DNA of 59,906 bases from a virus, in the IMG/VR virus record IMGVR_UViG_3300006789_000024, positions 1-59,906 of that record; one strand, given 5' to 3'. How positions within the stretch are numbered: the stretch's first letter is position 1; every line of letters starts with the position of its first letter. The translations under genes and the position numbers were made by a program. This document shows positions 3,598 to 37,520 of the stretch, one piece after another. The notes under the pieces are model-generated. The model made no database searches. It saw only the letters and a program-made list of their open reading frames with translations, and was not told where the DNA came from.

Positions 3598-5595
3598 ATG
3601 AAAGAAAATGATAAATTCTCAAATAAACCTAAAGGTAATAATAGTATATTAGAACATTTCGGAGAAGACTTAACTGAAGCCGCTAGGTTGGGTGAACTTG
3701 ACCCTATTGTAGGTAGAGAAAGCGAAATAAATAGAATTTGCCAAATTCTTTCGAGAAGAAAGAAGAATAATCCTATAATATTAGGAGATGCTGGAGTAGG
3801 TAAAACCGCAATAGTAGAGGCAATTGCACAGAGAATCATAGATAAAAAGGTTGCAAGAACTCTATTTAATAAGAGGATAGTCTGTGTGAATATAAGTAGT
3901 CTAGTTGCTGGCACGAAATATAGAGGAGAGTTCGAAGAGAGAATGAAGTTATTAGTTGAAGAACTTAAAGGTAATAAAAACATAATTGTATTTTTTGATG
4001 AGATTCATACGTTAGTCGGGGCTGGAGGTGTTAGTGGAAGTTTAGACGCTTCTAATATATTAAAACCTTCGCTATCTTCTGGTAAAATCCAATGTGTTGG
4101 AGCAACGACACTAGATGAATATAGAGAAAATATAGAAAAAGATGCAGCTTTAACTAGACGATTCCAAGAAGTTATGATAGAACCTCCATCTGAAGCAGAT
4201 ACTATAGAGATTCTGAATCGATTAAAAGATTCATATGAAGAATTCCATGGTGTTTCTTATGATGATGAAGCTATCAAAGCATGTGTAACGCTATCTAATA
4301 GATATATTACTCAAAGAGAATTACCAGATAAAGCAATCGATATTATGGATGAGGCTGGTGCAAAAATTCATATGAGAGATATTATAGTACCTAAAAATAT
4401 TAAAGGATTAGAATTAAAATCGACAGAATACGGAAAACTTAAAAGAGATTCTGTAGTAAAACAAGATTACGAGGCAGCTGCAAAATTTAGAGATTTAGAA
4501 ATTCAAAAGAACAATGAACTTGATAAAAAAATTAAGAAATGGGAATCGTCAATAAAGACTAAAAGAAAGCCAGTAACGAGAGAACATATTGCTGCAATAA
4601 TTGAACATGCCACAGGAATTCCTGTCACTGCCCTAACAGATAAAGAAAATGACATAATGGTAAATATGGAGAAAAACCTCCACAAAAGAATTATCGGACA
4701 AAATGACGCAGTTTCAGCAGTATGTAAGGTTATTAAAAGAAGTAGAGCTGGTGTTTCATCTGCTAATAAGCCAATAGGTTCATTTATGTTTATCGGTCCT
4801 ACTGGAGTTGGTAAAAGCCATTTAGTAAAATATCTAACAGAAAGTTATTTTGGTTCAGAGGATAATTTGATAAGAATTGATATGTCAGAATATCAACAAA
4901 GCTTTAATGTTTCTCGACTAATTGGCTCTCCTCCAGGATATGTTGGTCATGATAGTGGAGGCCAATTAACGGAAGCTGTTCGTAGAAAACCATATTCTGT
5001 TATATTATTTGATGAGGTAGAAAAAGCACATCCAGATATTTTTAATACTTTGCTTCAAGTTTTAGATGAAGGTAGATTAACTGATTCTATTGGAAGAACA
5101 GTAGACTTTACTAATACAATGATTATTATGACTTCAAATATTGGAGCAAAAAAAGTTGCTGATTTTGGAAATGGTATAGGATTTGCTAGAAAGGGCGAAG
5201 ATACAAAAGCATCTAGAATAGAATCTATTATAACAAAGGAATTAAAACATAAATTTGCACCAGAATTTCTTAATAGATTAGATGACATAGTTTTGTTTAA
5301 TCATTTAGAAGAAGAAGATATTCTTAAGATTGTTGATATTGAATTAGGATTTGTTATTGATAGACTTGCTGCACAAGGATATAAAATTAGAATAAACAAA
5401 GCTTCTAAGTTATTTTTAATGACTGAAGGTTACGATAGAAAATACGGAGCTAGACCTATGAAGAGAGCAATACAAGCACATATTGAAGATTTATTAGCAG
5501 ATTCTATAATAAACAAGAAAATATCTAAAGATACTGGAGTAACGTATCAGATAGTCCATAATAAAAAGAATGAAACGCTAACGATTAAATCATAA
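3598..5595 (+). CDS. clpC: ClpC-type AAA+ unfoldase lacking the Clp-N domain
   Basis: 665 residues with two AAA+ modules. Module 1 has Walker A GDAGVGKT (63-70) and Walker B VFFDEIH. Module 2 has Walker A GPTGVGKS (about 400) and Walker B ILFDEVEKAHPD. Between them DYEAAAKFRDLE (about 290) is the UVR motif typical of ClpC, not the long ClpB coiled coil. ClpC proteins usually have an N-terminal adaptor-binding Clp-N repeat domain of about 150 residues; here the first AAA+ module starts almost at once. In module 2, GNGIGFARK sits where ClpC carries its VGF tripeptide that docks on ClpP, so host ClpP could be used. Substrate and adaptor are unknown. ATP-driven protein unfolding is well supported. 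Confidence 0.9.
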   Translation: MKENDKFSNKPKGNNSILEHFGEDLTEAARLGELDPIVGRESEINRICQILSRRKKNNPIILGDAGVGKTAIVEAIAQRIIDKKVARTLFNKRIVCVNISSLVAGTKYRGEFEERMKLLVEELKGNKNIIVFFDEIHTLVGAGGVSGSLDASNILKPSLSSGKIQCVGATTLDEYRENIEKDAALTRRFQEVMIEPPSEADTIEILNRLKDSYEEFHGVSYDDEAIKACVTLSNRYITQRELPDKAIDIMDEAGAKIHMRDIIVPKNIKGLELKSTEYGKLKRDSVVKQDYEAAAKFRDLEIQKNNELDKKIKKWESSIKTKRKPVTREHIAAIIEHATGIPVTALTDKENDIMVNMEKNLHKRIIGQNDAVSAVCKVIKRSRAGVSSANKPIGSFMFIGPTGVGKSHLVKYLTESYFGSEDNLIRIDMSEYQQSFNVSRLIGSPPGYVGHDSGGQLTEAVRRKPYSVILFDEVEKAHPDIFNTLLQVLDEGRLTDSIGRTVDFTNTMIIMTSNIGAKKVADFGNGIGFARKGEDTKASRIESIITKELKHKFAPEFLNRLDDIVLFNHLEEEDILKIVDIELGFVIDRLAAQGYKIRINKASKLFLMTEGYDRKYGARPMKRAIQAHIEDLLADSIINKKISKDTGVTYQIVHNKKNETLTIKS

Positions 5596-5623: not shown

Positions 5624-6538
5624 ATGAGTCAACCAACATTCACAGATACATTTAAGGGAATACTGTATGAGATTGAAAATTCTAAAATGGAAGCTAATCC
5701 AAGAGATTTGAAAGTTAAAGAATCTTTATTAACTACATTACCAATAGACCCTATATTTCCATTTGCAAACTTTAGAAATAGAAATTTTAATTTTGGTTAT
5801 TTCGCAGGAGAATTAGCATGGTATCTAAAAAAAGATAATGATGTTGATTATATTTCAGATTACTCAGGATTTTGGAAAAACATCACAAACCCTGGAACAA
5901 ATGAAATCAATTCTAATTATGGAAGTCTTTTATTTGGAGAACAATTAAATTGGGTGGTAGAATCCTTAAAGGCTGACAAGAATACTAGGCAGGCAATTGC
6001 ATTCTTAAATCAACCTAAATTTCAATTTGATGGAAATAAAGATTTTGTATGTACTATGTATTTAAACTTCTTTATTAGAAAAAATGAGTTGCACATGAAG
6101 GTTCAAATGAGGTCAAACGATATATTTTACGGTCTAACATTTGATGCTCCATTTTTTGCATTTGTTCATCAACATGTATTTTTATGGATTAAAGATACAT
6201 ATCCAAATTTAGAGCTTGGTACATATTACCATTCAGCAGATAATACTCATTTTTATGAAAGGCACTTCGAATTAGCTAACAGGATACTTTCAGAAAACAC
6301 TCATAGTAACGAAGAGTATTGTATGGAATTGACTGAACCTATGTTCAATGTTAATCCAGGTGGAATGGAGTTAACTTCTTCCGGTAAAAGATTTATTAAA
6401 ATGTTAGAAGGTTTCGATCCTAACGATGAAGATTCTTTATTTTATTTAAGATTACTTGCACCATTTTTAGGAATTACAAGAGTTGATGTAGAAGAAAACA
6501 ATATGGAGGATCAGAATAATCAGACATTTGCCGATTGA
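5624..6538 (+). CDS. Thymidylate synthase-family enzyme, predicted dCMP hydroxymethylase
   Basis: 304 residues of the ThyA fold. The probable nucleophile is Cys143 (FVCTMYLNFF), the phosphate-binding block is RSND at 163-166, and the THFYERH block at 208-214 matches the HxYxxH nucleotide-binding site. In E. coli thymidylate synthase the residue after PF is Asn177, which reads uracil. Here the aligned block is YGLTFDAPFF with Asp174. Asp at this place is what makes T4 gp42 use dCMP and form 5-hydroxymethyl-dCMP. I therefore predict dCMP hydroxymethylase; dCMP methylation is the alternative. Cys143 is followed by Thr where ThyA has His. The neighbours include GalE (10287) and dCMP deaminase (20708), fitting pyrimidine modification. 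Confidence 0.75.
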   Translation: MSQPTFTDTFKGILYEIENSKMEANPRDLKVKESLLTTLPIDPIFPFANFRNRNFNFGYFAGELAWYLKKDNDVDYISDYSGFWKNITNPGTNEINSNYGSLLFGEQLNWVVESLKADKNTRQAIAFLNQPKFQFDGNKDFVCTMYLNFFIRKNELHMKVQMRSNDIFYGLTFDAPFFAFVHQHVFLWIKDTYPNLELGTYYHSADNTHFYERHFELANRILSENTHSNEEYCMELTEPMFNVNPGGMELTSSGKRFIKMLEGFDPNDEDSLFYLRLLAPFLGITRVDVEENNMEDQNNQTFAD

Positions 6539-6539
6539 T

Positions 6540-6848
6540 ATGATACCTAATTTTAAAATAAATACCTTAAAAGGACCAAACCCTGATAATATGATTATAG
6601 ACCTAGATGGATTCTATAATCATATGATGTATTTTATATTATATGCAAAGATGTTACACCCAGAAGAAAATTCTTTATGGAATGATGAACAAGTTCTTTG
6701 TAGATTTATAGATGAAAAGAAAAACACATATACTTCTACATTAGAAGAGGATGGATATGGCGCATCACTAGAGAAGTGCTTAATTTATTTTGAAAGGATG
6801 GAAGAATATGAAAAATGTAAACTAATAAAACATATACAAAAACAATGA
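6540..6848 (+). CDS. Small protein with C-terminal EEYEKC (UVR-like) motif
   Basis: 102 residues from ATG 6540, one base after the previous stop; a TTG at 6528 is in frame but less likely. The C-terminus reads CLIYFERMEEYEKCKLIKHI, the same motif found at the ends of the proteins at 12843, 14458 and 15024. The pattern (acidic, Y-E-K-C, then leucine or isoleucine and lysine) is like a UVR motif, a short helical hairpin used for protein contacts. The N-terminal part differs from the other members. Function unknown. The stop overlaps the next start (ATGA at 6845). Confidence 0.6.
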   Translation: MIPNFKINTLKGPNPDNMIIDLDGFYNHMMYFILYAKMLHPEENSLWNDEQVLCRFIDEKKNTYTSTLEEDGYGASLEKCLIYFERMEEYEKCKLIKHIQKQ

Positions 6849-8298: not shown

Positions 8299-9318
8299 AT
8301 GGCTATATTATCGTTTGAACAATGGTCTATTACTGAAAAATCAGCATTAATAGAATCTTACATGAAGAAGGTTAACTTTCTGTTAGCTGGAGAAAAGATT
8401 GAAGGGTTAACAGGAAAGAATAATAAGAGGATTTACGGTGAAATAAACGATAAATGTCTAGATGATTTATATAATGCATTCTATGCAGAAGGAGACGATG
8501 GAAAAGATTTAGATGTTAATCCAAAATTACCTATTATTTATTATGGAGGAAATAAAAATGAATCATTAGATTTTATTAAGAAATATAAAATTGAAGAAGA
8601 TGTAATGTATAATATCCCGTCTCAAATGAAAATAAGTGGGTCTAAATCTAACTTCTATAAGATGTTTGATGGTGCATGGTGGCTTCCTAAATCTGTATAT
8701 AAAATTGAAGATACAAAAGAATTAGAATTTCCTGTTATTGGAAAACCTGATGATGAACATTCAGGAATAGGTATAGAGATATTTGATAAATTTGAGGATA
8801 TTAAGAAGAGTAAATTGACATTTGATAATTTCTCAGAAGCTAAAGATTTAGCTCAAGAATTTAGAGTTCTTTTAATGAATGATAAAATCTGTCTAGCAAA
8901 TGAAAGAATTTCATATTCAGATAATGAAATTGAAGATAAAGACCCTGATGAACAGACTGAATTTGTTTATGTCGATAATGATTTAAGTAAACTAGATTTT
9001 TTAGATGATGTGATAAAAATATCTAAAGAGATTAGAAAGAAGGTTAAATTAGGGTTATGGAGTATCGATATTATGATTGATTCTGATGGAAAACTCTGGG
9101 TTGCTGAAATCAATTCTGCCTCTGGAATGGCAGCTGATAAAATGGCGAAAGTTTACATTATGATATATGAGGATTTTTATGGAGAAGAACTTCCTAAAGT
9201 ATTCAAAACTTTCTTATTTGATGAGTACATTGAACCAGTATACAAAAAAAATCTAGAGGTAAATAGTGAGGCTATTAAAAGGTCTAAAGGCGCAGTAGAT
9301 TATCTTAAAAATAACTAA
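8299..9318 (+). CDS. ATP-grasp fold ligase-like protein
   Basis: 339 residues. FPVIGKPDDEHSGIGIEIF (about 145-163) is the ATP-grasp lysine plus glycine-rich loop. EFRVLLMNDKICLANERIS is the central adenine-binding strand region. SIDIMIDSDGKLWVAEINSASG (about 255-276) carries the Asp and the Glu-x-Asn that bind Mg-ATP in RimK-like ATP-grasp ligases. These enzymes join a carboxylate to an amine through an acylphosphate. The substrate cannot be read from sequence; peptide or protein tailing is one option. The N-terminus MAILSFEQWSITEKSALIE weakly resembles the capsid-targeting motif of the next gene. A second possible carboxylate-amine ligase lies at 33202. Confidence 0.75.
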   Translation: MAILSFEQWSITEKSALIESYMKKVNFLLAGEKIEGLTGKNNKRIYGEINDKCLDDLYNAFYAEGDDGKDLDVNPKLPIIYYGGNKNESLDFIKKYKIEEDVMYNIPSQMKISGSKSNFYKMFDGAWWLPKSVYKIEDTKELEFPVIGKPDDEHSGIGIEIFDKFEDIKKSKLTFDNFSEAKDLAQEFRVLLMNDKICLANERISYSDNEIEDKDPDEQTEFVYVDNDLSKLDFLDDVIKISKEIRKKVKLGLWSIDIMIDSDGKLWVAEINSASGMAADKMAKVYIMIYEDFYGEELPKVFKTFLFDEYIEPVYKKNLEVNSEAIKRSKGAVDYLKNN

Positions 9319-12842: not shown

Positions 12843-13112
12843 ATGAATGAAGAAATGATGGACTTCGAGAATGAAATGTACAGCGAAGATGTACAATCTC
12901 AAATTAAAGATAACTTAGCTAGAAAGAACTATGATGTTGTATCCTCTCGCGACATTAACTTTAGCGATTATTATGGAAAGGAAAATCAGATTGAAATAGA
13001 AAAGACATTAAATGATATGATAGAGCATTTCACCGAGACAGAAGAGTATGAGAAGTGTGGAATGATTCTTAAAGAACTTAAGAAGGTGCAAGGTAAAATA
13101 ATTTCAGTTTAA
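12843..13112 (+). CDS. Small protein with C-terminal EEYEKC (UVR-like) motif
   Basis: 89 residues, acidic N-terminus (EEMMDFENEMYSEDVQ), ending EHFTETEEYEKCGMILKELK. The end is closely related to the protein at 15024 (EYFVETEEYEKCEKLMKLKK) and less closely to those at 6540 and 14458. The motif is predicted to form a short helical hairpin like the UVR motif of ClpC and UvrB, suggesting protein-protein contact. It has its own ATGTCGT promoter-like block. Its last base is shared with the next gene's ATG (TAATG). Confidence 0.6.
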   Translation: MNEEMMDFENEMYSEDVQSQIKDNLARKNYDVVSSRDINFSDYYGKENQIEIEKTLNDMIEHFTETEEYEKCGMILKELKKVQGKIISV

Positions 13113-13649: not shown

Positions 13650-14453
13650 ATGTCCTTTTATAAAACTCTTGGAATACTTGAAAATGCTACACAGGCTGAT
13701 ATAAAAACAGCATACCGAAAGTTAGCAAAAAAACACCATCCAGATACTAAAGGCGGAGACGCAAATAAGTTCAAAGAAATTTCTAAAGCTTATGAGCAGC
13801 TGGGGGATAAATTGAATAGGCAAAAATATGATGCTTCTAAGAGAATGGGAGCAGGACTTGGTGATGATTTTCTAGAAGCATTTAGGAATAGTTCAGATTT
13901 TGCAAGTATGTTTGATGGCGTATTTGGTACAAAGGTAAAAGGACCTGATATTCGAGTAAATATTCAACTTACACTCCATGAGGTATACTACGGTACTGAA
14001 AAACTTATAGATACTGGTGTATCTCGGTTTAGTCTAAAGATACCAAAAGGAATTTCCAATGGAACTAATCTTAAAATACGAGGAAGAGGTGGCAAACATC
14101 CAATAAACTCAAGCGCTCCGAATGGTGATATGATAGTTGTATGTAATGTATTATATAGTACTGAGATTATTATAAATGGTAGTGATATATGGGTAGAGGT
14201 TGATTTGCCATTTTATGATTTAATGTTAGGTACTACAATTACAGTTAGAAATATGTTTTATGTAGTTATGGTAGATGTTCCTAAGGGTTCGTATAACGGA
14301 AAAGTTTTAAGAATAGGTGGAAAAGGAATTCCTATATATAAAACAGATAGATATGGTAATTTAATGGTAAAATTAAATGCGATTAAACCCAACCTAAATG
14401 AAGAACAATATAGGCTATTAGAACAAATAAAATCAATTGATAAAAAAAATTAA
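13650..14453 (+). CDS. DnaJ-like co-chaperone without zinc finger
   Basis: 267 residues. The J domain occupies residues 1-66 with the essential HPD at 30-32 and a KFKEISKAYEQLGD helix IV. A short Gly/Phe/Asp linker follows. The C-terminal part contains two beta-sandwich-like repeats (DIRVNIQLTLHEVYYGTEK, then FSLKIPKGISNGTNLKIRG). The CxxCxGxG zinc finger of DnaJ is absent, so it is of the CbpA (class B) type. It would stimulate the ATPase of host DnaK and may direct it to phage proteins during assembly or replication. No phage DnaK is seen here. Confidence 0.85.
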   Translation: MSFYKTLGILENATQADIKTAYRKLAKKHHPDTKGGDANKFKEISKAYEQLGDKLNRQKYDASKRMGAGLGDDFLEAFRNSSDFASMFDGVFGTKVKGPDIRVNIQLTLHEVYYGTEKLIDTGVSRFSLKIPKGISNGTNLKIRGRGGKHPINSSAPNGDMIVVCNVLYSTEIIINGSDIWVEVDLPFYDLMLGTTITVRNMFYVVMVDVPKGSYNGKVLRIGGKGIPIYKTDRYGNLMVKLNAIKPNLNEEQYRLLEQIKSIDKKN

Positions 14454-14457
14454 AATT

Positions 14458-14733
14458 ATGATAGACGACGGTGATATGAATTTTGATTTTGAACCAGATG
14501 GGGAATGGGATTCTATGGATTATGTAGATAATATGGGTATTGACTCAAGGCAGATGATGATGGACGTCGTGTATACTTCAATTATAAATAATAAACTTGC
14601 TGTCTTAAATAGTATATCTACTGATAGTCTAAAAATAGCAGCTATAAAACACGTACTCACATTCTTTGAAGAACTTGAAGATTATGAAAAATGCGGAGAG
14701 CTTAAGAAAATAATAGATAAAATAAAGGAATAG
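14458..14733 (+). CDS. Small acidic protein with C-terminal YEKC (UVR-like) motif
   Basis: 91 residues from ATG 14458, four bases after the dnaJ stop. A TTG at 14437 is in frame but would overlap dnaJ. The N-terminus is very acidic and rich in Met (MIDDGDMNFDFEPDGEWDSM). The C-terminus, FFEELEDYEKCGELKKIIDK, is the shared UVR-like helical motif also seen at 6540, 12843 and 15024. It sits between DnaJ and bS21 and is probably cotranscribed with both. Function unknown. Confidence 0.6.
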   Translation: MIDDGDMNFDFEPDGEWDSMDYVDNMGIDSRQMMMDVVYTSIINNKLAVLNSISTDSLKIAAIKHVLTFFEELEDYEKCGELKKIIDKIKE

Positions 14734-14737
14734 TATA

Positions 14738-14926
14738 ATGCTAATAGTGGAAGTTGTAAAGGGTAAGATTGATAAAGCTATAAAGCAAATGAGGCAAAAA
14801 GTCAATAAAACAAAGTTAAAGAAAACTCTTAGAGATAAAAAGCATTTCACTAAAAAATCTGAAGAAAAACGACTTAAAAAACAAAAAGCAATATATAATC
14901 AAAAGAAATTACGTGAAGAAGAGTAG
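14738..14926 (+). CDS. rpsU: Phage-encoded ribosomal protein bS21
   Basis: 62 residues that follow the bS21 pattern throughout. The start MLIVEVVKGKIDKAIKQMRQ matches the bacterial LIVxVxxGExIExALKR start. KTLRDKKHFTKKSEEKR at 29-45 matches the RxRxxFxKPSxxRR block, and KKQKAIYNQKKLREEE is the KAxYxQ basic tail. The length agrees with the family (about 60-70). bS21 sits on the 30S platform near the anti-Shine-Dalgarno tail of 16S rRNA; in Bacteroidota this region helps to hide the tail. A phage copy could replace the host protein and favour phage messages. It lies behind dnaJ, apparently in the same operon. Identification is by eye but the match is strong. Confidence 0.85.
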   Translation: MLIVEVVKGKIDKAIKQMRQKVNKTKLKKTLRDKKHFTKKSEEKRLKKQKAIYNQKKLREEE

Positions 14927-15023: not shown

Positions 15024-15278
15024 ATGAAAGAGAAGAATGGAGATAAAGACTCATTAATGAGAAATTGCTATTATACAATTACGCGTAATTTTACTAAAAC
15101 AGTTAATAAATTTGTAGTTTTCCAAAGTGAAGGAAACAGTATCGAAATATATAGTGGATCTGGTAATCGTAGCAAATTTATAGATATGATGATAGAGTAT
15201 TTTGTAGAAACTGAAGAATATGAGAAATGTGAAAAATTAATGAAACTTAAAAAGTTAGTATTAATGGCAGGTGATTAA
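15024..15278 (+). CDS. Small protein with C-terminal EEYEKC (UVR-like) motif
   Basis: 84 residues. The N-terminal part has strand-like sequence (YYTITRNFTKTVNKFVVFQ). The C-terminus DMMIEYFVETEEYEKCEKLM is the clearest relative of the 12843 protein. A 97-base AT-rich leader with AAATATATAATATC precedes the ATG. It is directly upstream of phoH. The conserved cysteine in YEKC could be structural or a contact point. Function unknown. Confidence 0.6.
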   Translation: MKEKNGDKDSLMRNCYYTITRNFTKTVNKFVVFQSEGNSIEIYSGSGNRSKFIDMMIEYFVETEEYEKCEKLMKLKKLVLMAGD

Positions 15279-15299: not shown

Positions 15300-16028
15300 A
15301 TGATGAGCAAAAAAAATGGAAAGAACGGGAACGGAAAGAAGATAAAACCACCAACACAGAGAAGAAGCTATGCAAGAGTTAAAATAGAACATATACAACA
15401 TGTTAAATTAAGAAAATCTCAACAACAATATTCAAGAAATATAGAAAAACACGATGTGACATTCTGTCACGGACCAGCTGGAACAAGTAAAACATATACA
15501 GCATGTTATACTGCATTAAAGTTATTAGCTGAAAAGAAAATTAGAAAAATTATTTTATGTAAACCTATTCAAGAGTCTGGTGAAAAATTAGGTTTTTTAC
15601 CTGGTGGTATTGAAGAAAAGATTGACCCATTCATGCAGTCATTTATTTCTAATCTTAGAAAAATAGTAGGTGAAGAGATAACACAAAGACTTTTAGATAG
15701 AGGTATTATAGTATTTAAGCCCCTTGCCTATATGAGAGGAGATACGTTTGATGATAGTTTAATGATTTTAGATGAAGCTCAAAATGCTACATTCAAACAA
15801 TTAATGTTATTTATAACAAGAATGGGTAAGACTTCTAAAGTTTTAATTACTGGAGATATTAGTCAATATGATATTCCTAAGAAAAGTACTGGTCTTCCTG
15901 GTTTTATTAAACTTATGGATGGAATAGATGGTGTTAAGAACTTCATATTCACAGAAGAAGATATTGTTCGTGCTGAGATACTTAAGAAAATTGTTATCAG
16001 ATACGAAAAATATAAGCCTCTAAATTAA
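15300..16028 (+). CDS. phoH: PhoH-like ATPase
   Basis: 242 residues. Walker A is GPAGTSKT (58-65) and Walker B MILDEAQNATF (155-165). VLITGDISQYDIP (181-193) is the sensor-like TGD-x-x-Q block of PhoH, and LGFLPGGIEEKIDPFMQ (98-114) is another family hallmark. PhoH proteins are RNA helicase-like ATPases; they are frequent in phages of marine and environmental bacteria, where their role is unsettled. The first 35 residues are lysine-rich (KKNGKNGNGKKIKPP) and may bind RNA. Two adjacent ATGs (15300 and 15303) could serve as start. Confidence 0.9.
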   Translation: MMSKKNGKNGNGKKIKPPTQRRSYARVKIEHIQHVKLRKSQQQYSRNIEKHDVTFCHGPAGTSKTYTACYTALKLLAEKKIRKIILCKPIQESGEKLGFLPGGIEEKIDPFMQSFISNLRKIVGEEITQRLLDRGIIVFKPLAYMRGDTFDDSLMILDEAQNATFKQLMLFITRMGKTSKVLITGDISQYDIPKKSTGLPGFIKLMDGIDGVKNFIFTEEDIVRAEILKKIVIRYEKYKPLN

Positions 16029-27788: not shown

Positions 27789-29150
27789 ATGGCAGACTTT
27801 AGTACATGGAACGATTTTAGAAAAGGACATTCTTTAGATAAGAAAAATCAATACGCAGACCCTACGTATCTTTCATTTTCTCTTATGTTTGATTTCTTTG
27901 AAGGATTTTCATCTCCTTTATTAGCTGGACCCGCAAGACTATTTCTCACGGAACAATTAGAGGCAAGTGGAAAAGCACCAGAAGTAACGGATAATGATGA
28001 ACTTACAGAGCAGGCAGAAGTACAATATGATGGTAAGAAGCAATATGGTCATAGGCTTAAAGCTCTCGATGATTTTATATTTACATTAAAGAAAATAAAT
28101 AGAGAAATGCCATGGTATTGGCAATCTCTATCAGGAGTAGACACACTTCTAAAATATGACCCACTTAAACCATATAGAGGTGGTGAAGAGGCTAAGATGG
28201 CAATAGGTACATTAGAATCTATTGATTTAACAATAGCAGGTTTAATGCATTTATATAGAACCGCATGTTTTGATGAAAAGAGATGGAGCTATATTTTACC
28301 ACCAAATCTACGAGAATTTAGAATGTGGATTTACGTTACTGAATGCAGACCTATTAAAAATTTGTCTAAAATACAGGCTACTCTCGGGTTTGACAAAGGC
28401 GCGGCTAAAGATTCTTTAAGAGGTCTTACTTCGGGCGGTGGACTCAAGGGTACTAAAGACATATTTGACCCGTCAATTGGTGTACAAAACGCAAATGCCG
28501 GTATCAGCGGAGGAGACCATAGACCATATTTCTTTTTTGAATTAAGTGGTTGTGAATGGGATATACAGGGAGGAACTGCTCAATTTGCTGATTTACTAAA
28601 AACACCAGAAGGTTTTGCAGCATCTGAAATAGGTCTTTCGTATAAAAAAGTAGGTAAGGTAGATGGAAGAGTTCTTAATGGAACGATTATAGAATCTGAT
28701 AAAGATGCAGCTAGAGTATCTCCCGCAACCGAAGAAGAATCTAAACATTATGAACCTGGTGATTTTGGAGGTTTGATTGGAGATAAAGTTATGGATAAGA
28801 TTGGAGAGATGGGTGATCGTTTTGTTGATGATGCTTCGTTGTTTATGGAGAAAAAGAAACAACAGATTGGTCAGTTAGGTAGCGACATATATCGAGCGAA
28901 TGTTCCAAATTTTGAAAACATATATACGAATATGGTAGCAGACGCTGATAAAGCTACTGATATTAGTACTCTTTCTAAAAATATGCCAGAAAATGTCTTA
29001 GGTCTTAAGAAAGGAGGCACTGTTAAGGATGGTTTCGACCAAAGTGCAGTAGCTGGTTTGAATATTGGAGAGAACGTTAATGCCGATTCAAACACAACAG
29101 ATGGAGGTACTAGTGGCGATAACAACTTAGGAAATATTCACGATGAGTAA
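27789..29150 (+). CDS. Tail structural protein (possible tube-baseplate junction)
   Basis: 453 residues. DPTYLSFSLMFDFFEGFSSP (24-43) is followed by a Trp-rich helical part (MPWYWQSLSGVDTLLKYD), then RMWIYVTECRPIKN and FFFELSGCEWDIQGGTAQFA. The last 130 residues are polar and Gly/Asn-rich. The pattern is familiar from T4-like environmental phages, where the gene lies between hub and spike genes; a gp48/gp54-like role is plausible from position. It overlaps the spike gene by 8 bases. The exact T4 equivalent is uncertain. Confidence 0.6.
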   Translation: MADFSTWNDFRKGHSLDKKNQYADPTYLSFSLMFDFFEGFSSPLLAGPARLFLTEQLEASGKAPEVTDNDELTEQAEVQYDGKKQYGHRLKALDDFIFTLKKINREMPWYWQSLSGVDTLLKYDPLKPYRGGEEAKMAIGTLESIDLTIAGLMHLYRTACFDEKRWSYILPPNLREFRMWIYVTECRPIKNLSKIQATLGFDKGAAKDSLRGLTSGGGLKGTKDIFDPSIGVQNANAGISGGDHRPYFFFELSGCEWDIQGGTAQFADLLKTPEGFAASEIGLSYKKVGKVDGRVLNGTIIESDKDAARVSPATEEESKHYEPGDFGGLIGDKVMDKIGEMGDRFVDDASLFMEKKKQQIGQLGSDIYRANVPNFENIYTNMVADADKATDISTLSKNMPENVLGLKKGGTVKDGFDQSAVAGLNIGENVNADSNTTDGGTSGDNNLGNIHDE

Positions 29151-29874
29151 AAAAACAGCAAAAAAGGATAAAATAAGAGATACTCACTGGCTTGGTACTG
29201 TTGTAGATAATCAAGACCCTGAGAATTTTGGTAGATGTAAAGTTAAGGTTTTTGGTAAATTTGATTTACTAGAAAATGAAGCTATTCCATGGGCAACTCC
29301 AATGAATCGTAACAATGTAGGTTCTCATTATATTCCTCATGTTGGTGATGTTGTTTCTGTTAGATTTGATAATGGAAACATATACCACCCAGAATATTGG
29401 TTTCAAATCAATCAAAATAAAGAACTTAAAGACGAGGTATTAGATTCTTCTGGAGAGCCTGAAAATGTGGTATCATTAGTATATGATGCTAAACGAAATA
29501 TTAGAATATATCAATCTGAAACCGATGGTCTAGTTATAGCTCATGGAAAAGATGGTAAAGATTCTGAGCCGCTTATTAGATTATCTGATGATGGCAAGAT
29601 ATTTTTATATGCTGCTAATATTTATTTAGCAACACCAGAAGGAGATGACTTTAATGATATGGGTAATACTAGTCAGCCAGCAGTTAGAGGAGGAAGCTTA
29701 GAAGAGTGGTTAGATGAATATCTAAAGTTATTTGAGGACCATATACACCCAACAGGAGTTGGACCGTCAGGACCTGCAAAAGCCCTACCGCCAACGACTG
29801 TTCAAGTTCCTATTTTGAAAAGTAAACACATAAATTATCAACAAGACAATAAGTCTACAAACGCTAACTCATAA
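29143..29874 (+). CDS. gp5-like OB-fold spike protein without lysozyme domain
   Basis: 243 residues. The N-terminal half is the gp5/gpV OB fold: GTVVDNQDPENFGRCKVKVF, then IPWATPMNRNN and YIPHVGDVVSVRFDNG, ending with HPEYWF. T4 gp5 continues with a lysozyme domain and then a beta-helical spike. Here there is no lysozyme motif; a short strand-rich linker (about 120-165) leads to EWLDEYLKLFEDHIHPTGVG near the end. It is probably the central spike base. The stop shares a base with the next ATG. Confidence 0.8.
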   Translation: MSKKTAKKDKIRDTHWLGTVVDNQDPENFGRCKVKVFGKFDLLENEAIPWATPMNRNNVGSHYIPHVGDVVSVRFDNGNIYHPEYWFQINQNKELKDEVLDSSGEPENVVSLVYDAKRNIRIYQSETDGLVIAHGKDGKDSEPLIRLSDDGKIFLYAANIYLATPEGDDFNDMGNTSQPAVRGGSLEEWLDEYLKLFEDHIHPTGVGPSGPAKALPPTTVQVPILKSKHINYQQDNKSTNANS

Positions 29875-31446: not shown

Positions 31447-32643
31447 ATGTCAAAGGAAAAAGTTGTCGATACTGACAACAAAACCCCAGAATTCGACTGG
31501 AATGCGTATGAAGCAAGTTGCACAAGTTCAAAGAGAAAATCAGTTAAGCGAATGTCAGATGGAACAAAGTTATATTGTACTGAACCATACGCTGAAGAAT
31601 TACTAAAACTTTATAACCAAGATTTTACTGAAAATAATAGGATAGTTGGTGTTGAATTAAATAAATCCTATGAAGGAACTGTAGATTCAATTAGCGTTGA
31701 GTGGTGTATTATTGATATTGGGGCCAGAGACTCTGTATATGTAGATATGTCAAAAGAAGCAGAAGAGTACAAGAACTTATTAAAACCTGGAGAAAAGATT
31801 AATGTTCAAATCATAGAATCTAAAGGTTCTAAACAAGGAAAATATATATTAGGTTCAGTTGAAGCTGGATTTAAGCGCGCGGTATTTAATGAAATTTTAG
31901 ATAGTGTAGATAATTCTAAAACTGCGTATAACTCTACTGTAAAAAGTATTATACCAGGTGGAGGTTATATTATAGAAATACAGGGTATAGAATGTTTTAT
32001 GCCAGGTTCTTTAGCTGGAATAAATAAGCTACATGATTTTGAATCTATATTAGGAACTGAAATGTATGTAGTACCTATGAATTATTCTTCTGATAGAGGA
32101 ACTATTGTAGTTTCTCATAGAGAATATTTGAAAGCAATGATTCCTACTAAAATTGCTGAAATAAAAGAATATGAAAATGGAGTTGTAGTTAAAGGTAGCG
32201 TAACAGGTTCTGCTAAATTTGGAGTGTTCTGTGAATTTAATGAGTGCTTAACTGGTATGATTCATATAAATGATTTAGATGAAGAAACTCTAAAAAGACA
32301 TAAAGATAGAGAGATTACACCAGGAGAGGAAATAGAATTCTTTATTAAGAAAATTATTTCAGATACTAAGATTACGTTATCTCAAAAGCCCGTTGAGGCG
32401 GTGACTGATCCGTGGTTTAATGCTTCTGAAAGATTTAAGACTCCTGTTGTGGTTGTCGGTAAGGTTAGATCGGTTAAAGATTATGGTGTGTTTGTTGATA
32501 TTGGAGATGGCCTTGTGGGGTTGCTGCATGTATCTGAATTCCCTGAAGGACATGATTTGAATGAACTTATAAAAGGAAATGACATCACTGTCACTGTTAC
32601 GAGAATTGATGAAGAGACTCGTAAAGTTTTCCTTAAATTGTGA
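31447..32643 (+). CDS. rpsA-like: S1-like protein with four S1 RNA-binding domains
   Basis: 398 residues. Four S1 (OB-fold) repeats can be read: about 73-137, 161-225, 246-313 and 334-398. The last is the most typical (VVVGKVRSVKDYGVFVDIG, then GLVGLLHVSEF), and the third has KGSVTGSAKFGVFCEFNE. The N-terminal EFDWNAYE resembles the start of Bacteroidota ribosomal protein S1. Host S1 has about six domains, so this is a shorter form. S1 binds AU-rich leaders and brings mRNA to the 30S subunit. With the phage bS21 this points to ribosome re-tuning. It lies inside the tail module behind its own promoter motif, with late timing expected. A role unrelated to ribosomes is possible. Confidence 0.85.
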   Translation: MSKEKVVDTDNKTPEFDWNAYEASCTSSKRKSVKRMSDGTKLYCTEPYAEELLKLYNQDFTENNRIVGVELNKSYEGTVDSISVEWCIIDIGARDSVYVDMSKEAEEYKNLLKPGEKINVQIIESKGSKQGKYILGSVEAGFKRAVFNEILDSVDNSKTAYNSTVKSIIPGGGYIIEIQGIECFMPGSLAGINKLHDFESILGTEMYVVPMNYSSDRGTIVVSHREYLKAMIPTKIAEIKEYENGVVVKGSVTGSAKFGVFCEFNECLTGMIHINDLDEETLKRHKDREITPGEEIEFFIKKIISDTKITLSQKPVEAVTDPWFNASERFKTPVVVVGKVRSVKDYGVFVDIGDGLVGLLHVSEFPEGHDLNELIKGNDITVTVTRIDEETRKVFLKL

Positions 32644-32698: not shown

Positions 32699-33088
32699 AT
32701 GAAACTAACAGAAAAAAGACTAAGAGAAATCATTAGAGAGGAACTAACTTCTACAGATGTTAAAGTAGATGAATTAGCTCCTGTAATTGCTACAGTAGCA
32801 AGACAAGCGGCAGCTGGAGCGGTTGCTGATAAATTATCAGAAGGACTAGGTACTTTAATAAAGAAGGTTACTGAAGGTATTGTACCTGAACCTAAAGATT
32901 TAGTTAGTTTAGTTACGGATTCTGCTGAAATGCATGCCGCTGATGAGGATGAAGAACATACATACGAAGGATTTATGGGAGCTGCTAAAGAATTGGTAGA
33001 AAACGCTATTGCTAAAGTTGTTGGAGATGCAGCAAAAGATGCGGCTGCTGATGCGGTTAAAGATAAAATAGCGGCAAAAATAGGTTAA
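32699..33088 (+). CDS. Small Ala-rich protein with MKLTEKRLREIIREE start
   Basis: 129 residues from ATG 32699; the open frame extends upstream over the S1-like gene but the promoter motif and ATG favour this start. The N-terminus MKLTEKRLREIIREELTS is an amphipathic helix that I know as a recurring N-terminal tag on proteins of environmental phages. Its Ile-x-x-Glu ending could be cut by a gp21-type protease. The rest is Ala- and Val-rich helix. It may be a head-packaged or scaffold-like protein; this is inference. A clear terminator follows. Confidence 0.55.
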   Translation: MKLTEKRLREIIREELTSTDVKVDELAPVIATVARQAAAGAVADKLSEGLGTLIKKVTEGIVPEPKDLVSLVTDSAEMHAADEDEEHTYEGFMGAAKELVENAIAKVVGDAAKDAAADAVKDKIAAKIG

Positions 33089-33201: not shown

Positions 33202-34491
33202 ATGAACAGATTTAACGACGCAGAAATATTATCAAAATCTCTAGTCGGGATAGAGTTTGAATTCTACTCGAATAAAGATATAAAAGCGACAGCAAAAGAG
33301 CTTGGTGCGTTATTATATAGAAAGATTAGAGTTGAAGAAAAAGCTCATAGTGATTTTTCTCCTACAGCAAAAGAATTTAAGATAGAACCTGACATGAGCG
33401 GTGGAGAGAAACTTATGGAGCTAGTTACGGGTGCTATAGAATATAAAGACGCAAGACTTATTATCATTATAGTTTCTAAGTGGATTGAAGAGAATGGATA
33501 TACTAATGATATGTCATCAATACATCTTAATATCTCATTTGATAATAAAAAGGGTGGAGAAAGAAGAATTGAAAATATGAATGTTCTAAAATTCATATTA
33601 GAGTTTGATGAAGATTATGTATTTAATTTATTCCCACAAAGAGAAAACTCAACATACGCAAAATCTATAAAATATGTAGTTCCAAATACAGAAGTTTTTA
33701 ATATTGATGGTGGTTTAATCGATGAGAATAATTTTGGGTTTCCTAATTCAAAATACTATGGTATAAATTTTGAAAAGAGAATAAAAGATTATTTGGAGTT
33801 TAGATATATTGGTGGGAAGGATTGGGAAAAGAAGACTAGTAAGATATTACATCTGTTAGATTCATTTATAGTTCAATTATGGAAAAGTACAGAATCTAAA
33901 AAACTTAATCATTTTAACTCATTAGAACTTAAAAGAATACTTTCTAATAATAGGAGAATTATAGATGCTAAGATTGATTGGAGAGTTATTGAAACTGAGT
34001 GGAAGAATATTGAATTCACAGTTGACCTAAGCAAGGCCACAGAGATTATACAGAATTATTGGTCAAAGATACAAAAAAGAGTTATAAAGCTATTCACTCA
34101 CGGTTCTCTTACAAAAGGACATATAAATTATGATTCAGATACAGGGAAAGTCCAAGTTAAAGATGGTGAACTTTCGTATTGCGTTAATATCGATGGATAC
34201 GATTTTATAGACTGTGATATAAAGGGAGAACTTATTAACTGCGATATATTTGGCGGTAATATCAATAATTCAGATATTACAATTTGTAATTTCTATAATG
34301 GTGTTAAAATTGAATCCTCAAAAATTAAAAGTTCGTATATTAGCCAAGATTCCACGGTAAAAGATTGCTATATCTATGGTAAGGGTGTATTAAAAGGAGA
34401 GATGATAGGAGGAATATTTAGAGATGGTATATATGATAAAAAAAGAGCGAGGTTTAAGAAAACTGAGAAAATAAAATATGAAGAAAAATAA
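33202..34491 (+). CDS. Amidoligase-like enzyme fused to a beta-helix tail
   Basis: 429 residues. LVGIEFEFYSN (14-24), PDMSGGEKLMELVTGAI (63-79) and SSIHLNISFD (105-114) form the pattern of putative amidoligases (COOH-NH2 ligases related to glutamine synthetase): Gly-x-Glu-x-Glu, a Glu-Leu-Val-Thr strand, and a His-x-x-x strand. Such enzymes make amide bonds using ATP. The C-terminal 90 residues repeat short strands ending in Asp-Cys or Asn-Ser (FIDCDIKGELINCDIFGGNI), as in a right-handed beta-helix. Its place in the tail module suggests a virion protein, perhaps a peptide-ligating or scaffolding factor. The enzyme call is moderate. Confidence 0.55.
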   Translation: MNRFNDAEILSKSLVGIEFEFYSNKDIKATAKELGALLYRKIRVEEKAHSDFSPTAKEFKIEPDMSGGEKLMELVTGAIEYKDARLIIIIVSKWIEENGYTNDMSSIHLNISFDNKKGGERRIENMNVLKFILEFDEDYVFNLFPQRENSTYAKSIKYVVPNTEVFNIDGGLIDENNFGFPNSKYYGINFEKRIKDYLEFRYIGGKDWEKKTSKILHLLDSFIVQLWKSTESKKLNHFNSLELKRILSNNRRIIDAKIDWRVIETEWKNIEFTVDLSKATEIIQNYWSKIQKRVIKLFTHGSLTKGHINYDSDTGKVQVKDGELSYCVNIDGYDFIDCDIKGELINCDIFGGNINNSDITICNFYNGVKIESSKIKSSYISQDSTVKDCYIYGKGVLKGEMIGGIFRDGIYDKKRARFKKTEKIKYEEK

Positions 34492-34502
34492 AATAAAAAG
34501 AT

Positions 34503-35312
34503 ATGAGTGATATATTTTTAGGTGGGGCGTCGGGTATGGAAACTGAACATGTATTTAGTTCAACATGCTTAAATAATTTTGTTGAGGAGCTGGCAAATGA
34601 AATTACAGGAGCATGTATGGTTCCTATGAATTTGCCAAAAATTGAAGTAGAGGCTATTATAAATAGAGCTAGAAAATGGTTTTATAAAAAATATGAATAC
34701 TCTGTTCAAGAGAATTTCTTTGTAATACCAAAAGCTGCGTTTGATTCAACATACTTCAAAAGTTCAAGAACTATTAACATGCCAAACGGTGTATATTCTG
34801 TTTTTGGTGTTCATAAAACTAATGCAAGTTCTATAAGTAATGATGTGGACTTCCAAGCCGGTGGAGATTTTAATGTGGAGCGAATGTTTACTTCAAATAT
34901 GTATGGAAATGCTGGAGTAGCAGGTGCAGCAGAGCAATTAGAATATTATATAGTAAGTCAGAAGTTTTTTGATTTAGCACGACAAGTATTACAGAACCCG
35001 TATAGTTTTGACTATAATAGACTTAATAGAGCCTTAAGATTTACTGGAGAAACTCCAACATCTGATATTATATTAGAAGTTTATGAAACTATTCCAGATT
35101 GTGCGCTATATGAGGATGAGATGTTTTTTAGATATTGTTCAGCTAAAATAAAAGTTTCTCTTGGTGCTAAGCTAAGTATTTTTGAGTTCCAATTACCGGG
35201 TAATATAGCAGTTAATGGTGCTGATATACGAGATATGGGACAGAGCGAGCTTGAAGGTATAATAGAAGAAATAAATGAGGATGAGGGAACTGACTGGATG
35301 ATGCACTCGTAA
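34503..35312 (+). CDS. Virion structural protein (neck or baseplate)
   Basis: 269 residues. The middle has Tyr/Phe-rich strands (YKKYEYSVQENFFVIPK, RTINMPNGVYSVFGVHK). The end has a helix with FFRYCSAKIKVSLGAKLSIF, then FQLPGNIAVNGADI and an acidic terminal helix. The FQLPGN-v-x-(N/V)-Gly layout is familiar from structural proteins next to gp25-like genes. I cannot decide between a neck protein and a baseplate component. It has no apparent enzymatic motif. Confidence 0.55.
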   Translation: MSDIFLGGASGMETEHVFSSTCLNNFVEELANEITGACMVPMNLPKIEVEAIINRARKWFYKKYEYSVQENFFVIPKAAFDSTYFKSSRTINMPNGVYSVFGVHKTNASSISNDVDFQAGGDFNVERMFTSNMYGNAGVAGAAEQLEYYIVSQKFFDLARQVLQNPYSFDYNRLNRALRFTGETPTSDIILEVYETIPDCALYEDEMFFRYCSAKIKVSLGAKLSIFEFQLPGNIAVNGADIRDMGQSELEGIIEEINEDEGTDWMMHS

Positions 35313-35329: not shown

Positions 35330-35683
35330 ATGGAATTTTATATTAAAAAAGAAGGAGACCCTAGGTTTGATGTTAGTCAAATGGAAATCGATGATGAGAT
35401 TACAGAGCTTTTGATTCAAATAGAGACTTTGTTTTTTACAAGTAAAGGTTCTGTTTTAGGTGATGCAGATTTTGGTCTAAATTTAGATGATTATGTATAT
35501 TCTTTTAGATATAACGATGATATGCTGGTTAAGGTTGTTAAAGAAGCGATTAATAGATATATACCATTATCAAAAAAATACAGTGTAGACGTGACTGTTG
35601 ATTTTACAGAGGAGGTTGATAGACATATTGTGTTTATCAGCGTTGTTGTAGATTCTAAATATCAGGTGGGTCTTTACATATAA
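35330..35683 (+). CDS. gp25-like baseplate wedge protein
   Basis: 117 residues, the usual size for the GPW/gp25 family (about 110-135). The family block is SVLGDADFGLNLDDYVYSF (about 40-58), matching the Gly-x-x-x-x-Asp-Phe-Gly region of gp25, followed by a helix and two strands (YSVDVTVDFTEEVDRHIVFI). In T4, gp25 sits in the inner baseplate and starts sheath assembly. The gp6-like gene follows at once, the same order as in many contractile systems. The call is firm. Confidence 0.85.
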   Translation: MEFYIKKEGDPRFDVSQMEIDDEITELLIQIETLFFTSKGSVLGDADFGLNLDDYVYSFRYNDDMLVKVVKEAINRYIPLSKKYSVDVTVDFTEEVDRHIVFISVVVDSKYQVGLYI

Positions 35684-35699
35684 ACATTAATAAATAAAA

Positions 35700-37520
35700 A
35701 TGGCAGATTTCAAATATTTACAAAAGTCTAGAATTAAGACAAAAGAAATGATAAGTGATACTCAAACTTTTATAAGTAGAGTATACAGTAGAGCGGGTAC
35801 TTTGTTTACTTCAGCCTCACCATTTGCTCAAATATTAAATGTATTACAAGAGCTTTCAACTTTTATTTTCCACTACATAGAAGATGCGATGGTGGAACAA
35901 AACATATTAACAGCTCAACATAAAGAATCTATATATGGTTTATCAAGGCTTGCAGGTCACGATCCATTTAGAGGCACTGCAGCACAGGGTGAAATAAGAA
36001 TTAGATTAAATCCAACAACTATTTCTGAAGTAGCTGGAGATGCTATCAACATATTACCAGATAGTATAATTAAAATGGAAGCTAATAGTCTAAAATATAC
36101 TATGCTAACTAATTCAGATAAATTTAGAATTTCAAAAACATCTACTAATTTTATTAGAATACCTATAATTCAAGGAGAAGTTGAGAGACAAACAGTTACC
36201 GGTACCGGAGAAAAGTTTCAATCTTTTAATATAATAACTAAAGAAAATACCGACCACAATCATGTTAAAGTTTCTGTAAATAGTATTGTATGGCAGAAAT
36301 ATGATTCTATATATGATATGAAAGTTGGAACTGCAGGGTTTATTGTAAAAACTGGAATTACTGGAGGGTTAGATGTTTATTTTGGAAATGGAAGTTTTGG
36401 AGCTCTTCCCCCTTTAGGAAGTTCTATAGAGATTCAATATATTAAAAATAAAGGAGATAACGGTAATTTAATTGGAGGTAAAAACTTAAAATTTAAGTTT
36501 GAAGATGATGGGTTTGATAGTATAGGAAATTCATATGACCTAAACGAACTACTAGAGACTGAAGTATCAGTAACGCCTAGAATGGGTTCAAATCCTGAAA
36601 GTATAGAACTTACAAAACTTATTGCCCCACTACAATCACATGCATTTGTATTAGCGACTCCAGATAATTATGAGGCATTTTTATCTCAATATGGTATGTT
36701 TTCATATTTAGATGCATATAGTACTACCGATGACGGATATTTAGATGATGATAATGTTATTTATTTATTTATGTTGCCTGATATTAAGAGAAAACTTATT
36801 AAAAATAAAGATTATTTTAGTCTAGCTATTGATGAATTTTTCTTTTCTGAGGACGAGGAAAATGCGGTGTTGGATATAATTGAAAAATCAGGTAGACAAA
36901 TGCTGACTTCAGAAGTTAAAATTACTCCGCCATCCCCTCAATATTTTAGAATGGATATTAAGGTAAGGTATTTTGAAGGATATGATAAACACGGTATTTT
37001 TAATGATATAAGAAGTAAAATATCAGAATATCTTATGAACATTACTCGTAGGGATAGATTACCAAAATCTGATATAATTGCTATACTAGAAGGTGTTAAA
37101 GGTATTGACTCGGTTAATGTGCGTTTTGTCAGTAAGGCGGAAGAAGATGCTAGAAAAAATGGTTATTATGTTTCAGAAACTGTGACTATTACCCCAAATA
37201 CTCCAATACTTGAAGATATAGGAAATGGACAACAAAAGATGGTTTACTTCAAAAGAACAGTTAAGACCAAAAATGTTAGATTTGAAGAAGGTGCAGCTCT
37301 TCCAGAATATGTAATAAACTTAGATTCATTTGGAGATATTCTTTTAGAAAAAGATGAGGTAGCATTATTTAGAGGCGGCTGGGAAGATAGAGATGGAATA
37401 TTAGTAGATGATGATGCTTTAATCGGGGAGATGGGAGCACTTTCAGTTTATTTTGATGACCCACCAGTTCCTCAAACTATATTTACTAGGATTCAGGCAA
37501 AAAATAGAAAATCAATATAA
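35700..37520 (+). CDS. gp6-like baseplate wedge protein (J family)
   Basis: 606 residues, near T4 gp6 (660). Residues 1-90 are helical (FAQILNVLQELSTFIFHYIE), followed by the strand-rich repeats of gpJ/gp6 proteins (GTAAQGEIRIRLNPTT, VYFGNGSFGALPPLGSSIEI). The C-terminal domain has PSPQYFRMDIKVRYFEGYD, then a dimerising helix region with a DSVNVRFVSK strand. Its place after gp25 supports the call. gp6 dimers form the baseplate wedge ring that switches shape on infection. The stop shares a base with the next ATG (TAATG). Confidence 0.8.
   Translation: MADFKYLQKSRIKTKEMISDTQTFISRVYSRAGTLFTSASPFAQILNVLQELSTFIFHYIEDAMVEQNILTAQHKESIYGLSRLAGHDPFRGTAAQGEIRIRLNPTTISEVAGDAINILPDSIIKMEANSLKYTMLTNSDKFRISKTSTNFIRIPIIQGEVERQTVTGTGEKFQSFNIITKENTDHNHVKVSVNSIVWQKYDSIYDMKVGTAGFIVKTGITGGLDVYFGNGSFGALPPLGSSIEIQYIKNKGDNGNLIGGKNLKFKFEDDGFDSIGNSYDLNELLETEVSVTPRMGSNPESIELTKLIAPLQSHAFVLATPDNYEAFLSQYGMFSYLDAYSTTDDGYLDDDNVIYLFMLPDIKRKLIKNKDYFSLAIDEFFFSEDEENAVLDIIEKSGRQMLTSEVKITPPSPQYFRMDIKVRYFEGYDKHGIFNDIRSKISEYLMNITRRDRLPKSDIIAILEGVKGIDSVNVRFVSKAEEDARKNGYYVSETVTITPNTPILEDIGNGQQKMVYFKRTVKTKNVRFEEGAALPEYVINLDSFGDILLEKDEVALFRGGWEDRDGILVDDDALIGEMGALSVYFDDPPVPQTIFTRIQAKNRKSI

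What the first reader, a model, noticed from the sequence alone, without database searches (positions are those of the whole stretch)
31447..32643. S1-like four-domain RNA-binding protein within the tail module
S1 repeats are clear and the N-terminus resembles Bacteroidota S1. A large S1-type protein in a phage is rare, and its place in late structural genes suggests expression during virion production. A shorter S1 could replace host S1 on ribosomes or act as an mRNA-specific helper.
Basis: partly seen in the sequence, partly recalled or inferred. Interest (0 to 1): 0.75.

Follow-up and report, generated by a model that had tools for sequence, protein, structure and literature searches.

The report
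Phage-encoded short ribosomal protein S1
A virus of (probably) marine Bacteroidota carries its own shortened ribosomal protein S1, plus ribosomal protein S21, which likely sit side by side on the host ribosome and help it load viral messages; this kind of gene was already known from giant phages, but here it proves to be a fixed core gene of a very widespread phage lineage.

Summary
ORF 31447-32643 (398 aa) is a four-domain bS1 homologue between baseplate-hub and neck/wedge genes. It matches rpS1 models (3e-48) but scores below their full-length cut-offs, ending after domain 4 of 6. Its predicted structure aligns best with ribosome-bound bS1 (residues 49-398 on bS1 1-346). It keeps the N-terminal uS2-type helix, the Bacteroidia-specific FDW motif, the OB2 aromatic pair and RNA-face residues in domains 3-4, and adds a basic insert.
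It is not rare: at least 502 IMG/VR contigs encode it, and all 58 loci found independently through a baseplate gene carry it. Related S1s occur in Lak and 462-735-kb phages, already reported as possible rpS1 (PMC7162821); together they form a viral clade on a very long branch, not nested in a host clade.
New here: the window also encodes bS21 (14738-14926), as do 21 of 38 S1-bearing records tested and four of four 635-735-kb phages. bS1 and bS21 are neighbours at the 30S mRNA exit. Leaders are A-rich and SD-less.
Best reading: a phage bS1 that docks on Bacteroidota ribosomes and favours phage mRNAs. Ribosome binding is inferred, not shown; a virion role is less likely but open.

The parts
31447..32643 (+). 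Four-domain bS1-like protein (398 aa)
31492..31509 (+). N-terminal FDWNAY motif (residues 16-21), Bacteroidia-type bS1 signature; F16 and W18 invariant in 24 phage rows
31510..31584 (+). Phage-specific basic insert (residues 22-46; net +1 to +6 in 24 rows; C25 invariant), absent from bacterial bS1
31585..31632 (+). Helix 47-62 (EPYAEELLKLY...), structurally at the place of the uS2-binding N-terminal helix of E. coli bS1; Y48-A49 invariant
   Evidence: PMC10123108
31657..31857 (+). S1/OB domain 1 (residues about 71-137)
31918..32121 (+). S1/OB domain 2 (residues about 158-225), most conserved domain; Y174/F184 at the place of E. coli F120/F130
   Evidence: PMC10123108
32170..32385 (+). S1/OB domain 3 (residues about 242-313), RNA-face residues kept (F258, F261, H273)
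32434..32640 (+). S1/OB domain 4 (residues about 330-398), RNA-face residues kept (Y346, F349, H361), beta3-beta4 loop shortened
14738..14926 (+). bS21 homologue (62 aa), candidate partner of the phage bS1 at the 30S mRNA exit site
29143..29874 (+). Baseplate hub / spike OB protein (Phage_base_V, gp5-like), conserved upstream neighbour
33202..34491 (+). Amidoligase-like protein (just under the Pfam cut-off), conserved downstream neighbour
34503..35312 (+). Head-tail adaptor Ad2-like neck protein
35330..35683 (+). gp25-like baseplate wedge protein
35700..37520 (+). gp6/J-like baseplate wedge protein (query of the independent S1 presence test)

Best explanation
A phage-encoded, shortened ribosomal protein bS1. 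Its N-terminal helix and FDW segment anchor it through uS2 at the mRNA exit cleft of the Bacteroidota 30S subunit. OB2 lies in the cleft next to bS18/bS21 and the 16S 3' end, and OB3-OB4 hold single-stranded, A-rich, Shine-Dalgarno-less phage leaders. By competing with host bS1, together in many phages with a phage bS21, it biases initiation towards phage mRNAs. Shown: homology, domain content, retained motifs, lineage-wide conservation, bS21 in the same genomes, SD-less leaders. Inferred: ribosome docking, exchange with host bS1, preference for phage mRNA, late timing.
For: Best structural match is bS1 from a 30S mRNA delivery complex: Z 14.2, 323 aligned, but rmsd 12 because domains move relative to each other; residues 49-398 on bS1 1-346. 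N-terminal helix and FDW motif kept. OB2 Y174/F184 and the OB3/OB4 RNA-face aromatics and histidines kept. Published bS1-ribosome contacts: Phe5/Phe9 helix on uS2, OB2 F120-F130 pocket, bS21 as clamp (PMC10123108). bS21 in the window, in 21 of 38 S1 records and in 4 of 4 635-735-kb phages with related S1. Leaders SD-less (4 of 56 against 2.9 in shuffles) and A-rich. F. johnsoniae bS1 raises initiation on an SD-less mRNA about two-fold in vitro (PMC9976891). Core gene, 58 of 58; dN/dS 0.05-0.17.
Against: No biochemical or expression data. bS21 is not found in the 234-kb, 199-kb, 170-kb and Lak records, so the pair is not obligatory. SD-less A-rich leaders are the norm in Bacteroidota hosts, so they do not by themselves point to S1. 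A-richness does not differ between the early and structural parts of the window. The gene is a constant member of the baseplate cluster in this lineage, which also fits a virion role. Domains 5-6, part of the RNA-binding half in E. coli, are absent.
Confidence: 0.55

Rival explanations
1. Off-ribosome RNA-binding protein: it coats or protects phage mRNAs, or acts as a decoy that titrates host bS1 targets or uS2 sites and so dampens host translation, without working as a productive initiation subunit.
For: RNA-face residues are kept only in D3-D4; the four-domain form lacks D5-D6; strong divergence from every host bS1 (branch 4.4).
Against: Retention of the N-terminal uS2-type helix, the FDW segment and the highly conserved OB2, which have no detectable RNA-binding activity in E. 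coli bS1 (PMC10123108), argues for ribosome docking; co-encoded bS21.
Confidence: 0.25
2. Virion or tail-assembly protein: an S1/OB-fold protein recruited as a baseplate or neck component or assembly chaperone, explaining its fixed place in the baseplate cluster.
For: Same slot, hub - S1 - amidoligase-like - Ad2 - gp25 - gp6, in all 34 marine/freshwater representatives examined and 58 of 58 gp6-anchored loci have S1; hub and amidoligase-like genes also flank it in the 462-kb LR756500; gp6 and gp25 homologues lie near the related S1 on the L074 contig, on the opposite strand.
Against: In Lak phages it lies next to a tRNA-His guanylyltransferase and DnaB; no homologue of the four baseplate/neck families was found within 16-20 kb in Lak-A2 and three 636-735-kb phages (profiles may miss diverged forms). 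RNA-binding and ribosome-docking residues are conserved. The structure matches bS1 and viral S1 proteins; no phage tail protein is listed.
Confidence: 0.15
3. Neutral cargo or assembly artefact (host contamination).
For: None positive; bS1 is a host gene and metagenome contigs can be chimeric.
Against: Identical viral context in dozens of contigs from different samples, monophyly away from bacteria, dN/dS 0.05-0.17.
Confidence: 0.02

Closest known systems
Possible rpS1 proteins of huge phages (Al-Shayeb et al. 2020, PMC7162821; compared here through records LR756500-LR756504, LR745206) and Lak-phage S1-like proteins
   Same: Same viral clade in the tree (SH-aLRT 100); LR756500 also shares the hub and amidoligase-like neighbours; Lak shares the FDW-like segment and the basic N-terminal insert; the same proposed role in initiation and the lack of SD were published.
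   Different: Here a 396-440-aa four-domain form in phages represented by contigs up to 236 kb, more than 500 contigs, a fixed slot in the baseplate cluster, and bS21 in the same genome. Lak proteins lack a recognisable D4.
bS1 of Bacteroidia (e.g. Flavobacterium, Chryseobacterium, Bacteroides)
   Same: Collinear D1-D4, FDW motif, similar acidic pI about 5.
   Different: Phage form lacks D5-D6, has a basic insert of about 25 residues after FDW and a shortened D4 loop; 25-28% identity to Bacteroidota bS1 in tblastn; separated by a very long branch.
Phage bS21 (Mizuno 2019 PMC6375957; Chen 2022 PMC9723584)
   Same: Window encodes a bS21; proposed ribosome substitution during late infection of Bacteroidetes.
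   Different: Those papers treat bS21 without bS1: Mizuno set S1-domain hits aside as ambiguous, and Chen reports no other ribosomal protein genes in its completed genomes.
bS1 of Microcystis jumbo phage PhiMa05 (PMC13157829)
   Same: Phage-encoded bS1 proposed to act on host ribosomes.
   Different: Placed with Vampirovibrio RPs as a host acquisition in that paper; not retrieved by our tblastn search of the phage collection.

Membership tests
Ribosomal protein bS1 | Tandem S1/OB domains collinear with bS1 from domain 1 on | tested here: met
   NCBIfam query 57-397 on rpsA 4-341; PDB E. coli bS1 22-344; structural alignment to bS1 1-346
Ribosomal protein bS1 | Full-length score above the curated rpsA cut-off (six-domain equivalog) | tested here: not met
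   139 bits against 577 for TIGR00717; truncated after D4 and divergent. So it is filed as bS1-like / phage rpS1, not as an orthologous full-length bS1
Ribosomal protein bS1 | N-terminal uS2-binding aromatic helix | tested here: met
   Helix 47-62 with invariant Y48-A49, aligned with the start of E. coli bS1; by sequence and model only, binding not tested
Ribosomal protein bS1 | RNA-face residues in OB3 and OB4 | tested here: met
   F/Y258, F261, H273; Y346, F349, H361
Ribosomal protein bS1 | Binds the 30S subunit and supports initiation | not testable with these tools
   Needs biochemistry
Phage rpS1 clade (huge-phage/Lak type) | Monophyly with rpS1-like proteins of huge phages | tested here: met
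   One clade of 24+8 rows, SH-aLRT 100, with 4 huge-phage rows left out again 100; long branches, so moderate trust
Host bS1 recently captured by the phage | Nested within the bS1 clade of one host group | tested here: not met
   Not nested in any sampled host clade, branch length 4.4; deeper union with Bacteroidia bS1 not rejected, p-AU 0.31
Ribosomal protein bS21 (14738-14926) | PF01165 above gathering cut-off | tested here: met
   41.6 bits against 27; 40.5
Virion structural OB protein | Structure or sequence match to phage tail OB families | tested here: inconclusive
   Best matches are bS1 and viral S1 proteins; no tail protein listed, which does not exclude one

The most novel reading that the evidence does not exclude
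A large, widespread lineage of Bacteroidota phages carries, as a core gene, its own bS1 and often a matching bS21, which together rebuild the mRNA exit site of the host 30S subunit. Infected cells would then contain virus-specialised ribosomes for SD-less phage mRNAs.
Probability: 0.4. Interest if true: 0.78.

Novelty: new member of a known kind. Interest (0 to 1): 0.52.

Why it matters
bS1 and bS21 are neighbours at the ribosome's mRNA exit and influence which messages are loaded; Bacteroidota ribosomes cannot use Shine-Dalgarno pairing because bS21/bS18/bS6 hide the anti-SD. A phage lineage that always carries a bS1 and often a bS21 makes the open question 'do viruses remodel host ribosomes to prefer their own mRNA?' directly testable in a genetically tractable host group with a purified translation system (F. 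johnsoniae). [quoted passage not shown]

Tried and rejected
T4-type late promoter TATAAATA: not enriched (19 against 18.3 expected). SD element before phage bS21, as in host rpsU autoregulation: an SD-like AAAGGA stands before the window copy, but 17 of 18 loci lack it, so taken as chance. Stronger A-richness of late leaders: not found. RimK-like ATP-grasp (8299-9318, phrog_2599) as a third ribosome-platform factor: only one of 17 S1 records tested has it. Bacterial-genome scan for integrated copies: only one close relative, L074, on a contig that carries gp6/gp25 homologues and so looks like a misbinned phage. Base rate of bS21 in phages by tblastn: no hits with this divergent 62-aa query, so the bS21 association has no unrelated-phage control. 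Within the lineage bS21 is probably inherited together with S1, so 21 of 38 records are not independent events. The 34 synteny representatives were chosen through S1; the unbiased test is the gp6-anchored 58 of 58, itself limited to the 80 best of 468 hits.

Full report
1. Observation. The ORF at 31447-32643 encodes 398 aa from ATG. Pfam S1 scores 71 bits over the whole protein. rpS1 models of NCBIfam score 3e-48 to 1e-40 and align query 57-397 with model positions 4-371, that is domains 1-4 of six, but all scores lie under the full-length cut-offs. E. coli bS1 is the best PDB sequence (4.8e-39). PHROGs has no S1 family that matches. The AlphaFold2 model (24-sequence alignment, pLDDT 79, pTM 0.52) has a short helix at 18-23, a helix at 47-62 and four OB folds. 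Among solved structures the best match is bS1 in a 30S mRNA delivery complex: Z 14.2, 323 aligned residues, residues 49-398 on bS1 1-346. The rmsd of 12 A reflects domain movement, so single-domain agreement is the safer claim.

2. Family and distribution. A first scan gave 71 IMG/VR loci, 47-94% identical. A profile-guided scan confirmed 502 encoding contigs, 80 kept. The 71 members of the first scan are 396-440 aa and end just after domain 4. Contigs reach 234-236 kb, so these are probably jumbo phages. The window is a 59,906-base linear IMG/VR record. In the annotated phage collection, related proteins occur in the 462-kb LR756500, in 635-735-kb phages and in Lak phages of Prevotella, together with obvious bacterial contaminants. 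BFVD holds similar proteins from virus NIOZ-UU157 and uncultured marine phages.

3. Place in the tree. With 41 bacterial bS1 (40 from a Bacteroidota-phylum sample and related records, one Acinetobacter outgroup), the 24 phage rows form one clade (SH-aLRT 99). With eight huge-phage/Lak rows they form one clade (100) on a branch of 4.4 changes per site. Removing four of the longest rows keeps the viral clade at 100; forcing viral plus Bacteroidia bS1 into one clade is not rejected (p-AU 0.31). So this is an old viral lineage, not a recent pick-up from the present host, and its deeper source is unresolved. One shared character points to Bacteroidia: an F-D/N-W-x-x-Y/F/H motif near the N-terminus, present in 13 of 13 Bacteroidia-type bS1, in 0 of 28 other bS1 sampled, and, with variants, in the phage family and Lak. 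The host is therefore probably a member of Bacteroidia; this is inference.

4. What is kept and what is changed. Kept: the helix with invariant Y48-A49 at the place of the E. coli helix whose Phe5/Phe9 stack on uS2; the OB2 aromatic pair Y174/F184 at the place of E. coli F120/F130, described as a hydrophobic pocket at the SD-anti-SD site (PMC10123108); and RNA-face aromatics and histidines in OB3 (F258, F261, H273) and OB4 (Y346, F349, H361) (the RNA-face assignment rests on general knowledge of S1 domains). OB2 is the most conserved domain in phages (mean majority identity 0.83, 32 invariant columns), as it is in Bacteroidia bS1 (0.94). Changed: no D5-D6, a shortened D4 loop, and a conserved basic insert of about 25 residues (net +1 to +6, invariant C25) between the FDW motif and the helix. 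Selection is purifying (dN/dS 0.05-0.17).

5. Neighbourhood. In all 34 representatives the gene lies between the gp5-type hub region and amidoligase-like, Ad2 neck, gp25 and gp6 genes. Those were picked through S1. A test that starts from gp6 gave 58 of 58 loci with S1 where more than 6.5 kb upstream was held. It is a core gene of this lineage. In Lak phages the neighbours are a tRNA-His guanylyltransferase and DnaB helicase. The baseplate profiles found nothing within 16-20 kb in Lak-A2 and three 636-735-kb phages, but did in LR756500. Tail placement is thus a lineage habit, not shown to be a universal rule.

6. Window 14738-14926 encodes bS21 (PF01165, above cut-off). Of 38 S1-bearing viral records, 21 also have bS21. 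The four 635-735-kb phages with related S1 have it too, while LR756500 and two Lak records do not. In the three 234-236-kb records it was not found. In E. coli, bS21 helps clamp bS1 OB1 to the 30S at the mRNA exit (PMC10123108). In Bacteroidia, bS21 with bS18 and bS6 hides the anti-SD, and bS1 promotes initiation on an SD-less mRNA (PMC9976891).

7. Leaders. In 56 ATG-started window genes, SD-like 4-mers in -18..-4 number 4, against 2.9 in shuffles; A makes up about 57% there against 37% in the genome. This fits Bacteroidota-type initiation. It also cautions against reading the published link 'phage rpS1 - no SD' (PMC7162821) as cause and effect, because Bacteroidota hosts lack SD anyway.

8. 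Mechanism. Most likely the protein competes with host bS1 for uS2 at the exit cleft through helix 47-62, helped by FDW and the basic insert. It places OB2 near the 16S 3' end and bS18/bS21, and holds A-rich phage leaders with OB3-OB4; where a phage bS21 is present the two would exchange together. Everything after homology, motif retention and co-occurrence is inference. Rivals are an off-ribosome RNA binder or decoy and a virion OB protein.

9. Verdict. Phage rpS1-like proteins are a published kind; this is a member of it, with new facts: core status in a very large lineage, the bS21 partner, the Bacteroidia-type N-terminus and the phage-specific insert.

Noticed in passing
window 14437-14733, 12843-13112, 15024-15278, 6528-6848: Several small ORFs share a C-terminal 'EExEDYEKCxxLKKxI'-like segment reminiscent of UVR/McsA motifs; one lies directly before bS21, and the same kind of C-terminus precedes bS21 in related phages. 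No Pfam match for the three that were searched.
   Followed up: partly
window 8299-9318: RimK-like ATP-grasp protein (phrog_2599, 'S6 glutaminyl transferase'); in only 1 of 17 related S1-bearing records.
   Followed up: partly
window 32699-33088: Short protein after S1 begins MKLTEKRLREIIREEL, a leader-like N-terminal motif whose role (virion targeting?) was not studied.
   Followed up: no
window 33202-34491: Amidoligase_2-like protein, just under the Pfam cut-off, conserved beside S1 in the whole lineage and in LR756500; role in a baseplate cluster unknown.
   Followed up: partly
L074 (ONCO01000010.1): Contig filed under an Erysipelotrichaceae MAG carries a divergent phage S1 (35% identity) with gp6/gp25 homologues on the opposite strand; probably a misbinned phage contig.
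   Followed up: partly
window 3598-5595, 13650-14453, 15300-16028: Phage-encoded ClpA/B-type AAA ATPase, DnaJ and PhoH: host-takeover or chaperone set near bS21.
   Followed up: no
L202, L203 (Lak phages): Lak S1-like proteins have an acidic tail instead of a recognisable domain 4 and sit beside a tRNA-His guanylyltransferase.
   Followed up: partly
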